Below are positions 31,700 through 53,392 of a stretch of DNA of 64,000 nucleotides, one piece after another. Position numbers and translations under genes: made by a program. The notes below the pieces were generated by a model. That model saw only the letters and a list, made by a program, of their open reading frames with translations. It had not been told where the DNA came from and ran no database searches. Origin of the DNA: Crambe crambe (taxonomy: Eukaryota > Porifera > Demospongiae > Poecilosclerida > Crambeidae). The stretch's first letter is position 1; every line of letters starts with the position of its first letter. The DNA is taken from positions 1,984,001-2,048,000 of the forward strand of contig OZ004582.1 in NCBI GenBank assembly GCA_963924555.1. The letters run 5' to 3'.

Positions 31700-32390
31700 G
31701 TTATCTTTTGGGGTGTATTAGTTATTGGGGCCAGCATAGGCTGTGAGGGTTGCTTATCTGGATTTTGGTGCACTTCATTCATATCGGCTGTTGAGGCCTT
31801 TAGGGTAGATTGTGTCCATTTGCTTTATCCAGTGGCTTTCTCTTACCTTCAGAGAGTCCGTTGGTCTTTTCCAAGATGATGAATGTGACATCCTTCTCGA
31901 AGTCATGGAGGGGATCTGTAAAGTGCTAATATAGGGGAAGATTAGTCTTTGTTTTGCTGGCCGCTCTGTGGCCAGCAAATCTTGTGCCTATTGTTCTTTG
32001 TGTCTGTCCTTTCTTTTGGGGCATCTCGTGCATTCCAGGAGGTATATAACATTGGTGGTCTGGCAGTTTGTGTGTTTTGGTGTGGTTTGTTGTTCTGATT
32101 AGATGTGACTTTGGGTTTCCTGGACATTCTCCTACAGCACTTGCAGCCAGGTGTAGCACATGCAGCCGAGTTGCCATTGAAGTTAGGGGTTATTGGGATG
32201 TTCATCTCTAGTGTGGATTGTGGTGGGTCTGGAAACTGTCTCAGTTTCGCTCTGACGAGTTTCTGAGACAGGTTCTTCGGCCTCTTAAGGCTAAGGCACG
32301 GGGTAGGAACCTGTTTCTCTTCGCTCTGTTTAGGTTTCAGGGTCTGTCCATGAGTCAACATGCTCATGGAACCAATACTATCCAGTCTTG
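31700..32390 (-). mobile_element. Penelope-like endonuclease end, copy 2
   Basis: Nearly identical to 20190-20790. It reads GQTQRTIGTRFAGHRAASKT with the Cys-rich linker, and a variant of the HWIKQM...YPKGLN end. Cut on the 5' side at about 32390, where element X1 begins. Confidence 0.7.
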
Positions 32391-32393
32391 ACA

Positions 32394-33176
32394 TTTCTTT
32401 TCAGTGGTCAGCTCTATGCAGACTACATTAGGATGAATGAGTGGTTGGGACTCCCGACTTGCTCAGACAAACAGTGGCACCGGATAATAGAGAGGCTTGA
32501 GCAGCATGTCACCGAGTTGGCAGAGTGGTCCTCTAGTCGGGTAAGGCAAATGATAGTACAGAGGGGTGATGCAAAGAAGTGGGTAGCTTCATTTGATGGG
32601 TTTTACCTGACACGGGGCCACTACTCCAACAATGCCTCAGCTACCATCCACGATTTCAAATCAAGTGATATTATGTGGTTCACCCACCACACAAAGAGAG
32701 GACCAGGGCATAACTGGGAAGGTACCTCTGGAGGAGCAGAGGGTGACATGCTGGATGAGTTGATGGGAAAGGTGAAGGATTCTGGTTTTTCCATCAAGGA
32801 AATAATTACCGATAAGGATTCATCCACAAATGCCATCTTCTGCAGACACTTTCCTGAGGGCCGACATCCTAGCAATGTCACTCATCCCTCCTTAGTCAGT
32901 TGTCTCTCCAAACTTCCCACTCGCTCTCCAAAGAAGCAGATGAATGCGTGGATTGAGCAAAAGAGAACCTTCCAAAGAACAACTGCCCTCATCAAGTCTC
33001 TAGGGAAGCCTACCATCACCAAACCTCAGGCCAAACGACTGGATGATTTGGGTTTCACTTATGAAGATCTTGTGAAGCTTCGATCCAAACACAAGGACAG
33101 AGAAGTCTTCCAGCAAGTCCTAAAGGACAAGGGCGTGAATAGCAAGCCGAAGCTGTCGAAGTTTCTTCGCCCTTAG
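32394..33176 (+). CDS. Element X, copy X1: transposase-like protein with exonuclease-type C-terminus
   Basis: After an AG acceptor (TTTTCAG, about 32403) one open frame encodes LYADYIRMNEWLGLPTCSDK, WVASFDGFYLTRGHYSNNAS, KRGPGHNWEGTSGGAEGDML and EIITDKDSSTNAIFCRHFPE. The two conserved Asp (FDG and TDKD) in RNase H-like context suggest a DDE/D transposase, distantly Mutator-like; the third acid is not seen. At about residue 165 the frame jumps to HPSLVSCLSKL, the start of the C-terminal region that in X2 follows a DEDDh exonuclease motif, so an internal piece is deleted here. It ends SKPKLSKFLRP. A histone-type stem-loop follows 88 bp later. Confidence 0.6.
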   Translation, partial: FLFSGQLYADYIRMNEWLGLPTCSDKQWHRIIERLEQHVTELAEWSSSRVRQMIVQRGDAKKWVASFDGFYLTRGHYSNNASATIHDFKSSDIMWFTHHTKRGPGHNWEGTSGGAEGDMLDELMGKVKDSGFSIKEIITDKDSSTNAIFCRHFPEGRHPSNVTHPSLVSCLSKLPTRSPKKQMNAWIEQKRTFQRTTALIKSLGKPTITKPQAKRLDDLGFTYEDLVKLRSKHKDREVFQQVLKDKGVNSKPKLSKFLRP

Positions 33177-33263
33177 TCACCGGCACGACTACCTGAGCCC
33201 TCGCCAACTTCAGCCTTCTCTCTGGGATCTCTCTTCGTGATCGCCTCGACCTGTTTTTCAACC

Positions 33264-33279
33264 GGCTCTTTTCAGAGCC
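33264..33279 (+). terminator. Histone-mRNA-type 3' stem-loop downstream of X1
   Basis: GGCTCTTTTCAGAGCC is an exact match to the replication-dependent histone mRNA stem-loop (6-bp stem, TTTC loop), followed by ACCA as in histone genes. The orientation agrees with X1. In histone genes it binds SLBP and replaces poly(A) addition. No histone gene is nearby. Confidence 0.8.
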
Positions 33280-33836
33280 ACCATAGCTACAGGAGATTTC
33301 ACTCGCACGCACAATTATTAAGGGGGCGTGGCTAGCAATAATGTTAGTGGGCAGATTTATATATAGGTTCTACAGTTCTAGCTACTCTAACTCAGGAACG
33401 AAGTATGGGATTCGGCCCATATGTTACATGCTGCTAGTAAGTGTTAAGATGAATAAAGTTACGTTTCCTTTTTATGCATATACGGTCTAGAATTTGTATG
33501 GCAGCTGAATATACAGGGTCATATACAGATAAATAGAAAAGTAAAGTTTAAATCAACAAAAGCTAAACGTAACTTTGTAGGAGACTAGAATAGAAGGTAG
33601 TAGAGCAAAAATCAGCGATTGCCTGCTAGCGATCGTTTAGATGGAGTGCCGTTTATCTTGAAAATGACATAGCTCATAACCTTGGTAAGAATTATCCATT
33701 TCCCTTCATTTTTGCCGTGTGTAGTATTCCTTTAGCACTTCACAGTCCTGTGCTTGTTAGAAGATCCTGCTGAAGACAATTGTTGAGATATTTTCCCATA
33801 GCAACCATGCGTGGGCGTATGTCCGACCACCTTTAA
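33280..33836 (+). other. 3' flank of element X1
   Basis: Non-coding, about 550 bp, recognisably homologous to 50589-51095 behind X2. Shared landmarks include GATAAATAGAAAA, AAAAATCAGC, CCCTTCATTTTTG and ATGCGTGGGCG. It ends where Penelope sequence starts at about 33836. Confidence 0.65.
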
Positions 33837-50551: not shown

Positions 50552-50567
50552 AGCTCTTTTCAGAGCT
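50552..50567 (+). terminator. Histone-type 3' stem-loop behind X2 (first)
   Basis: AGCTCTTTTCAGAGCT is a 6-bp stem with TTTC loop, the histone stem-loop with a compensatory outer pair change (G-C to A-T). Orientation agrees with X2. Confidence 0.65.
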
Positions 50568-50572
50568 ACACC

Positions 50573-50588
50573 GGCTCTTTTCAGAGCC
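50573..50588 (+). terminator. Histone-type 3' stem-loop behind X2 (second)
   Basis: GGCTCTTTTCAGAGCC, identical to the loop behind X1, five bases after the first. It is followed by CCCCAAATAGACAAAAGATT; ACAAAAGA lies where a purine-rich downstream element would sit. Confidence 0.8.
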
Positions 50589-51095
50589 CCCAAATAGACA
50601 AAAGATTCATCCGCGCGCACGAATAATACACACAAAAAGGGGTGGGGCACTAGAACTAAAGTAATGCGACCAAGCTGCATAGTATAGGATCGTGTATCTC
50701 TGGAACCGCTAATGGGAATGAGCCCATTTTTGCAGCTGGCTTCCACCTGATAACATACTCAAAAATAACAGTTCGTTTTTATCCGTACCCGGTCTGGAAA
50801 TGCTCTAAACACACCCTGTGATACTGATAAATAGAAAAATAAAATCAAAATGGGAAAAACTCACTGTTATGTTGTAGAGTACCTAGAGAGGAGTCTCTGA
50901 AACAAAAATCAGCCATGTAAGTCCGGAGGTCAACGAGATCTCGAGACGTTTAACATCTACAGAAATCATCCTTTTTCCCTTCATTTTTGTTGTGTGTGTG
51001 GTAGTTGTAGTGGTCTATAGTTAGGTGCTTGTTTCATTTTGCTTCTAGAAATAGTTCTGGTACCCTAGCAACGCGGTGCGTGGGCGGGTTGCGAG
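50589..51095 (+). other. 3' flank of element X2
   Basis: Homologous to 33280-33836 (see X1), non-coding. It ends at the point where RAG1-like coding resumes, so the right edge of the X insertion is about 51070-51100. Confidence 0.6.
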
Positions 51096-51099
51096 CACC

Positions 51100-51742
51100 C
51101 TTAAGCTCAAAAATGTCAGGAAGCTGATGGCTGAAATTGACAAGGTCACTGAAGAACACTGTGTCACATATCCTGACCTTCTTAAAGATGGAAAATCTGT
51201 AATAAAAAAATTCAGAACACTGATGCAATTTTTTAGGAAGTGCCATCGGGGATATAACTCCGCTACATACATGTCAGATAGTGATATTGACCAGCTTGGT
51301 AAGTGTTAATGATTGACAATGCCATACTGATGACCTACACTTCCCAATCACAGAAAAGGACATTAAAACCTTTATGGCCTTTTATAGAGAAGAGTTTCCC
51401 TGGGCTACCATTCTTCCCAAGATGCATGTGATGGAAGATCACGTCATCCCTTGGCTCAGACACTTCCACGTTGGAGCAGGGCTGATGGGTGAGCAAGGGG
51501 CAGAGTCCATCCATGCCCTTATGATGAAGCTGGAGAGGAACTTTCAAAGCATCCCCAATGAACTAGACAGGCTCAAATACATTGTCAAGGAGCAAGCACT
51601 AGCAACAGCTCCTTCATTGCTGACATTAAGGCCTCCTATCAAGAAAAGGAAAGTGGGTGAGAGCTCTGATGAGGATGAGAGCTCTGATGAGGATGATGAA
51701 GAGCAAGAGGATAGCTCTTTAGTCCATCCCATGCCCAGTTAG
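51100..51742 (+). CDS. RAG1-like element: C-terminal DDE segment
   Basis: Coding resumes with VRKLMAEIDKVTEEHCVTYP and runs to an LG|GTAAGT donor near 51300. After the intron it continues (acceptor AATCACAG, 51353) with EKDIKTFMAFYREEFPWATI, PKMHVMEDHVIPWLRHFHVG and GLMGEQGAESIHALMMKLER, then an acidic tail. The GEQGAESIH box is placed like the third catalytic Glu region of RAG1/Chapaev-type transposases (RAG1 has an E-G-N-E-S-G-N-K box there). The reading frames are intact in both exons. This and 47607-49180 were probably one gene before X2 inserted. Confidence 0.6.
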
Positions 51743-52444: not shown

Positions 52445-53392
52445 ATGACGGAGCTACTACAGATGCTGTTGGAGGATCGTCGAAAGCGTGACGAGGAAGC
52501 AGCGGCGGGAGCTAGAGAGCGAGAAGAAGAGAATCGGAGATGAAAACGAGAGAGAACCGAAGAGCAGGAGCGTCGGGAGAGAGAGAACGAGCAGTGAGTG
52601 AGGCTAATGCAAAAACAGATCGAGATGATGAAGACAGATTCAGGAGGAAGCAAGGACCAAGCGGGCAGAAGATCTACGACACTTGACGCTATCAAAGCTG
52701 ACGACATCGAGGCATATCTGACCACCTTTGAACGGATGATGAAAGCGTTTGAGGTCAAGAGGGAGAAGTGGGTCTTCAAGTTGGCTCCTCAGCTCACCGG
52801 GAAGGCACAGCAGGCCTTCGCAGCGATGAATCCAGAGAATACTGCTGAGGTGAAGAAAGCCATTCTACGACGCTACGATATCAGCGAGGAAACCTATCGT
52901 CAGCGCTTCCGGACTGCAAAGAAGGCAGAGGGGGAGGCATACTTGGAGCTGGCAACAAGACTGAGAGATCTACTTGAGAAGTGGACGGCTAGCTGTACCA
53001 CACTAGAGGCACTCAAGGAGAAGATCGTGGTGGAACAATTGTTGGAGATGATGCCAAGGGACCTGAGGATATGGATCAACAACAGGAAGCCCACAACCGG
53101 AGAAGAAGCAGGAAAACTGGCAGACAGCTACATCCATTCCCGTCGACTAGAGTCCCAGGAGCCATCAAGGGAGACAAATCGATCCAGCAGTGAGTCAGAA
53201 GTAACCAGAAGATGCCACTATTGCAAAAAGAAGGGTCATCTTGCCAAAGAATGCAGGAAGGCGATAGCTGACAAAGCCAATGAGAGCGGGGCCAGCAAGC
53301 TGAAGACAGAGAAGAGCAAAATCAGGTGCTACAACTGCCAGGAGATGGGACATATTGCAGCAAAATGCCCTAGCAAGCCAGCACTAAGTTGA
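52445..53392 (+). pseudogene. Ty3/gypsy gag with two CCHC knuckles
   Basis: One frame from ATG 52445 (MTELLQMLLEDRRKRDEEAA) to TGA 53390-53392, broken only by two TGA codons (near 52541 and 52593). Both read as CGA-to-TGA changes in Arg-rich context. It contains a capsid-like region (DDIEAYLTTFERMMKAFEVK, WVFKLAPQLTGKAQQAFAAM) and two zinc knuckles, CHYCKKKGHLAKEC and CYNCQEMGHIAAKC, for RNA binding. It is about 315 codons, normal for gypsy gag. Confidence 0.8.

What the first reader, a model, noticed from the sequence alone, without database searches (positions are those of the whole stretch)
33264..33279. Canonical histone-mRNA 3' stem-loop behind element X1
The 16-nt sequence is identical to the replication-dependent histone stem-loop and sits in the right orientation 88 bp after the X1 stop codon, with ACCA following. 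No histone gene is near. An element that ends its mRNA the histone way could tie its expression to S phase and avoid polyadenylation.
Basis: partly seen in the sequence, partly recalled or inferred. Interest (0 to 1): 0.85.

Follow-up and report, generated by a model that had tools for sequence, protein, structure and literature searches.

The report
Transposon with a histone-type mRNA ending
A family of jumping genes carries, just behind its protein-coding part, what looks like the complete signal that histone genes use to end their messages, which suggests that the jumping gene's message is made when cells copy their DNA.

Summary
The stem-loop at 33264-33279 is real, exact and oriented as described, and it is not a lone chance match. 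X1 is a decayed copy of a Kolobok-superfamily DNA transposon (TTAA target sites, GG...CC ends). An intact relative encodes an 885-aa transposase fused to a DEDDh exonuclease, as in the published KolobokD lineage. In this 143-Mb genome 27 of 41 loci with X's last coding domain have the stem-loop behind it on the same strand; most of the others that I read show disrupted remnants. The stem-loop is followed by a downstream element resembling, in sequence and spacing, that of the host's own histone genes. X1's element pairs at -24 kcal/mol with a candidate host U7 snRNA, against -14.5 to -17.3 for eight histone genes; four X subfamilies show no such pairing. An SLBP gene is present. Of 55 Rfam histone-stem-loop matches I assign 8 to histone genes, 33 to X and 10 to other repeated or transposon-like sites. 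Best reading: X transposase pre-mRNA is cut by the histone machinery. Transcript ends, S-phase expression and SLBP binding are untested; the U7 candidate is only moderately supported. My paper searches found no description of such a transposon.

The parts
33264..33279 (+). histone-type stem-loop behind X1
33280..33283 (+). ACCA, expected cut region of histone pre-mRNA (inferred)
   Evidence: cut position inferred from the histone pathway (recalled)
33289..33304 (+). histone downstream element, predicted to pair with the candidate U7 snRNA at -24.2 kcal/mol
32347..33831 (+). X1: 5'-truncated and internally deleted KolobokD copy; its 3' end reads CCACC before TTTAAA
32406..33176 (+). X1 coding remnant: PF20700 transposase part joined to the C-terminal domain, exonuclease lost
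33452..33457 (+). AATAAA, possible back-up polyadenylation signal
50552..50567 (+). first of two tandem stem-loops behind X2, A-T closing pair
50573..50588 (+). second, exact stem-loop behind X2
50598..50613 (+). downstream element of X2, predicted pairing -20.2 kcal/mol (end approximate)
50838..50843 (+). AATAAA downstream of X2
51087..51104 (+). 3' end of X2 (GAGCACCC) and the TTAA behind it

Best explanation
X1 is a decayed copy of a Kolobok-superfamily DNA transposon of the KolobokD type. The family's transposase-exonuclease gene ends in a histone pre-mRNA 3' signal: stem-loop, cut region and downstream element. Most likely SLBP and the U7 snRNP cut the transposase pre-mRNA behind the stem-loop, giving a message without poly(A). 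By analogy with histone mRNA it would be made and kept mainly in S phase, so that the transposase acts while DNA is being copied, when cut-and-paste jumps can add copies. Shown from sequence: the signal, its recurrence across diverged subfamilies, its likeness to the host histone genes' signal, predicted pairing with a candidate U7, and a host SLBP gene. Inferred: cleavage, lack of poly(A), S-phase timing and benefit to the element.
For: 30 exact sites against 0 backward controls, of which 26 lie in X elements and 1 probably. 27 of 41 X C-terminal loci have a same-strand stem-loop within 400 bp. Among nine stem-loop-bearing subfamily representatives the stem-loop is 97% identical, the flanks 27-28%. 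Downstream pairing starts 8-13 nt behind the stem-loop, mostly 9-10, in histone genes and in most X copies. 39 of 66 stem-loop sites reach -15 kcal/mol in that window against 9 of 66 further downstream and 1 of 66 upstream. SLBP RNA-binding domain in two exons on C15.
Against: No RNA data. Subfamilies D, G, H and I pair with the candidate U7 no better than shuffles. AATAAA lies 172-250 nt downstream in A, B, E and F. The U7 candidate scores only 16.1 bits with Rfam's model and its promoter matches one of three U2 genes well (17 of 22) but the other two only 13 of 22. The X gene has ten exons, unlike typical histone genes (recalled). Both copies in the window are defective.
Confidence: 0.75

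Rival explanations
1. Passenger: the transposon once captured the 3' end of a host histone gene and the stem-loop has stayed by descent without function.
For: The module behind other elements is 82% identical over 61 bp to the 3' end of the host H3 gene, so capture is plausible. 14 of 41 X loci lack a pattern match.
Against: Stem-loop 97% identical among representatives whose flanks no longer align (the representatives were chosen because they have a stem-loop). Paired changes G-C to A-T of the closing pair. Downstream element kept at the right spacing in many copies.
Confidence: 0.13
2. Mixed ends: the histone-type cut is used in dividing cells and the AATAAA further downstream gives polyadenylated messages otherwise. 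This overlaps with the best explanation.
For: AATAAA at +172/+173 in A and B, +250 in E, +236 in F. Polyadenylated transcripts of histone genes are described in an abstract seen in a search listing (PMC3661734).
Against: No AATAAA within 600 nt in subfamily G or in copy L013; for C, D, H and I only about 200 nt were read.
Confidence: 0.35
3. A cis-acting DNA site for transposition, such as a subterminal palindrome bound by the transposase, not an RNA signal.
For: The stem-loop sits 545-582 bp inside the 3' end in eight of the nine copies whose 3' end was found (437 in L010), and copies that lost coding sequence keep it (L001, L042, L044).
Against: It lies behind the gene on the coding strand, and a downstream element of histone type follows at histone spacing. 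The host histone genes have the same structure.
Confidence: 0.06

Closest known systems
KolobokD lineage of Kolobok DNA transposons (PMC9587614, passages read)
   Same: TTAA target sites, 5'-RR and YY-3' ends, transposase with a DEDDh exonuclease
   Different: The paper's main text contains neither 'stem-loop' nor 'histone' and lists molluscs, arthropods and cnidarians for KolobokD; here the gene ends in a histone-type 3' signal in what is probably a sponge (inference)
Replication-dependent histone genes' 3' end (Rfam RF00032)
   Same: Stem-loop, AACC before and ACCA-like sequence behind it, downstream element at the same spacing
   Different: The gene is a ten-exon transposase; pairing with the candidate U7 is stronger in several X subfamilies and absent in others
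Other PF20700 (Mutator-like) elements of this genome, C5/C14 and C3:205.6k
   Same: Stem-loop plus U7-complementary element behind the gene
   Different: A protein 97% identical to the C5 one has PF20700 only, without the exonuclease; stem-loops differ from X's: GGCTTTTCTAAAAGCC, a one-base-shorter form on C5, or GGTTCTTTTCAGAGCC

Membership tests
Kolobok / KolobokD transposons | TTAA target-site duplication | tested here: met
   TTAA at both ends in 5 of the 13 loci examined: L003, L010, L017, L018, L019; for the other 8 one or both ends were missing or not found
Kolobok / KolobokD transposons | termini 5'-RR and YY-3' | tested here: met
   GGGTG...CACCC in the same five copies
Kolobok / KolobokD transposons | DDE transposase of this clan | tested here: met
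   PF20700 met by X1, by the transposase exon of several X copies and by homologues. The joined 885-aa protein itself passed only PF00929. Catalytic residues and a tree were not tested
Kolobok / KolobokD transposons | DEDDh (DnaQ) exonuclease downstream of the transposase | tested here: met
   PF00929 at residues 598-784, E 2.6e-17, in the intact copy L003; absent from X1, which has lost that part
Histone-type 3' end | 16-nt stem-loop of RF00032 | tested here: met
   exact 16-mer; 33.7 bits against a gathering score of 34 for the 46-nt model
Histone-type 3' end | downstream element complementary to U7 snRNA | tested here: inconclusive
   strong predicted pairing for X1 and X2 with the candidate U7, but the identity of that U7 is only moderately supported
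Histone-type 3' end | mRNA ends behind the stem-loop without poly(A); SLBP binds | not testable with these tools
   no RNA or binding data; an SLBP gene is present

The most novel reading that the evidence does not exclude
Histone-type 3' ends are a strategy taken up more than once by different DNA transposons (KolobokD, two other PF20700 lineages, perhaps a piggyBac-like remnant and an unclassified element) to tie transposase synthesis to S phase. In this genome transposons own more histone processing signals than the histone genes do, with stronger predicted U7 pairing in several families.
Probability: 0.35. Interest if true: 0.95.

Novelty: new variant of a known kind. Interest (0 to 1): 0.85.

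Why it matters
The histone stem-loop is known almost only from histone genes (recalled). A transposon family that carries the whole signal would have a direct way to read the cell cycle, and it would give a mechanism for timing jumps to replication, when a cut-and-paste element can gain copies. The prediction can be tested with total-RNA data from the host; libraries selected for poly(A) would miss such messages.

Tried and rejected
Chance palindrome: rejected (30 exact sites against 0 backward controls). Rfam U7 search of the genome: two hits near 18 bits, not usable. The U7 pattern search gave 7 places against 5 for its backward control, so the pattern alone is not specific. L062 stood out by a hairpin and by a promoter match to one U2 gene that I picked after looking; with the other two U2 genes it reaches only 13 of 22, and L065 reaches 13-14, so I call it a moderate case. 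Relatives' DNA elsewhere: none in viral contigs or genome contigs, so the signal could not be tested outside this genome. piggyBac as a general carrier: not supported; 1 of 62 PF13843 matches lies within 1.5 kb of a listed stem-loop. Other PF20700 places: 1 of 33 non-X places, merged by eye, has a listed stem-loop within 1.5 kb; the C5 copies have a one-base-shorter form that the pattern misses. P-element-like pieces beside L079 are named from recall; Pfam showed nothing. The exact stem-loops at C13:4366936 and C13:4447502 lack ACC and U7 pairing and are set aside. Of the 14 of 41 X loci without a same-strand pattern match, 11 were read: L029 has it inverted, L036 has one loop change, L051, L053, L054, L055, L056 and L059 show remnants, L052, L057 and L058 show none; three were not fetched. 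Only 100 of the 107 degenerate matches were listed and used. L033 and L040 are counted as transposon-like by resemblance of their 3' sequence only, which is weak.

Full report
What is there. The 16-mer at 33264-33279 is exact, on the + strand, 87 nt behind the X1 stop codon and followed by ACCA. A second exact copy, with a variant directly before it, lies at 50552-50588 behind another X gene in the same window. In the genome that holds the window (143 Mb, 119 contigs) the 16-mer occurs 30 times against 0 for the backward pattern. All 30 places were read: 26 lie in X elements by coding or 3' sequence, one (L023) probably does, one is behind a histone H4 gene (L028), and two are near-identical unrelated places on C13. 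Rfam's histone stem-loop family gives 55 matches at E up to 10, four of them over the gathering score; only 75 of 27315 candidates were scored, and the 14 bacterial and archaeal control genomes also ring below the cut-off. By the loci read I assign 8 to histone genes (seven by protein match, one H1-like by its lysine-rich frame, by eye), 33 to X at 30 loci (L023 included), 10 to other repeated or transposon-like 3' ends (L008, L012, L016, L026, L031, L033, L039, L040, L043, L045) and 4 to none of these. A transposase-like protein was identified only at L008, L012 and L045 of the ten.

What X is. X1 matches PF20700 and is truncated and internally deleted. The copy on C13 (L003) has an unbroken gene: ten exons with GT-AG borders, 885 aa, with an RNase_T exonuclease domain (E 2.6e-17). 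Its best matches among solved structures are chains named exodeoxyribonuclease III, PolC-type exonuclease, TREX2 and TREX1 (E 4.5e-7 to about 2e-3). Five of 13 examined copies (L003, L010, L017, L018, L019) have GGGTG...CACCC ends between TTAA sites. These are the marks of the Kolobok superfamily, and the exonuclease is that of the KolobokD lineage (PMC9587614, passages read). Thirteen homologues of 41-53% identity were found in the protein collection, one named from Dysidea avara, a sponge; the host is therefore probably a sponge (inference). X1 shares its internal deletion breakpoint with L002 on C5, so this short form was probably itself spread.

The signal recurs across the family. Of 41 loci with X's C-terminal domain, 27 have a same-strand stem-loop within 400 bp. 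Of the other 14, 11 were read: one inverted, one with a single loop change, six with remnants, three with none. Nine subfamily representatives, chosen because they have a stem-loop, show 97% mean pairwise identity in it, 28% in -90..-13, 44% in -12..-1, 64% in +1..+4, 32% in +12..+30 and 27% in +31..+90, ungapped. Changes of the closing pair from G-C to A-T keep pairing in several tandem copies; among 15 stem-loop variants three have an unpaired A-C closing pair and one a T-T mismatch. In the tandem copies with a downstream element it is the second stem-loop that has it at +10.

The downstream element. The host's histone genes have AAGATTTCAC-like sequence behind the stem-loop, and so do many X copies. 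A search for its complement followed by a U7-type Sm site gave seven places, no more than chance would (control 5). One, L062 on C14, has a hairpin directly behind the Sm-like site and, 87 nt upstream, 17 of 22 bases of the promoter element of one host U2 gene (reached by 0 of 2000 and 1 of 1000 shuffles). That element was picked after looking at three U2 genes; against the other two L062 has 13 of 22, which is not special, and another candidate, L065, reaches 13-14. Rfam's U7 model gives L062 16.1 bits, far below its cut-off. I take it as the likely but unproven U7 gene. Its 5' part pairs with the eight histone genes at -14.5 to -17.3 kcal/mol, one of them not better than shuffles (p 0.098). 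With X subfamilies A, B, C and K it pairs at -22 to -24, E and F at about -20, J at -18, B2 at -16; with D, G, H and I it pairs no better than with shuffles. Of 66 stem-loop sites 39 reach -15 in the expected window, 9 do so 100 nt further on and 1 upstream. The pattern that found the candidate was drawn from these elements, so nine of the paired bases are partly circular; the fixed spacing and the direct likeness of X and histone elements do not depend on the candidate.

Other elements. An unbroken PF20700 frame of 642 aa on C5 has, about 190 nt behind its stop, a one-base-shorter stem-loop and a downstream element. The same 3' module stands behind a decayed relative on C14 and behind an unclassified protein on C1, C9 and C19; its core is 82% identical over 61 bp to the 3' end of the host H3 gene. 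A further lineage at C3:205.6k, 33% identical to the C5 protein at its C terminus, has its own stem-loop and downstream element. A piggyBac-like remnant, L008, has one too, but 61 of 62 PF13843 matches have none listed nearby, and 32 of 33 non-X PF20700 places have none by the pattern. So the trait is frequent in X and occurs in a few other elements; capture from histone genes is a likely source.

Histone controls. Of 12 PF00125 matches five lie beside a stem-loop; an intron-bearing H3-type gene on C17 and an H2A-H2B pair at C14:572343-573180 are among those without one.

How it most likely works. Shown: the signal, its recurrence, its likeness to the host's own, and a host SLBP gene. Inferred from the histone pathway: SLBP and U7 snRNP cut the transposase pre-mRNA behind the stem-loop, the message has no poly(A) and is made and kept mainly in S phase, and the transposase then acts on replicating DNA. 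Against it: no RNA data, AATAAA motifs further on in subfamilies A, B, E and F, introns in the gene, and four subfamilies without recognisable U7 pairing.

What is known. Ten full-text searches were made. Those that combine histone stem-loop, SLBP or downstream element with transposon, transposase or transposable element gave no paper whose listing or abstract describes such a transposon; none of those papers was opened (in one search only 15 of 32 were listed). The only held paper naming KolobokD contains neither 'histone' nor 'stem-loop' in its main text. Subscription papers and supplements were not searched.

Noticed in passing
G000:C3:200000-5000000: 14 of the 30 exact stem-loops of the genome lie in the first 5 Mb of the contig that holds the window, an arm rich in X elements.
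   Followed up: no
L062:1488-1546: Candidate U7 snRNA gene: Sm-like site, 3' hairpin and a promoter element like that of one U2 gene.
   Followed up: partly
L060 (G000:C14:572000-573500): A divergent H2A-H2B gene pair without a match to the stem-loop pattern, unlike the pair at C14:6979-6980k.
   Followed up: no
window 52598-53389: An open frame with a SCAN domain and two zinc knuckles, gag-like.
   Followed up: no
L002, L050 and window 32347-33831: Internally deleted X copies on C5 and C3; L002 and X1 share the breakpoint, a short non-autonomous form that seems to have spread.
   Followed up: partly
L008 (G000:C3:1512100-1522000): A piggyBac-like remnant whose 3' part shares repeats and a stem-loop with other elements.
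   Followed up: partly
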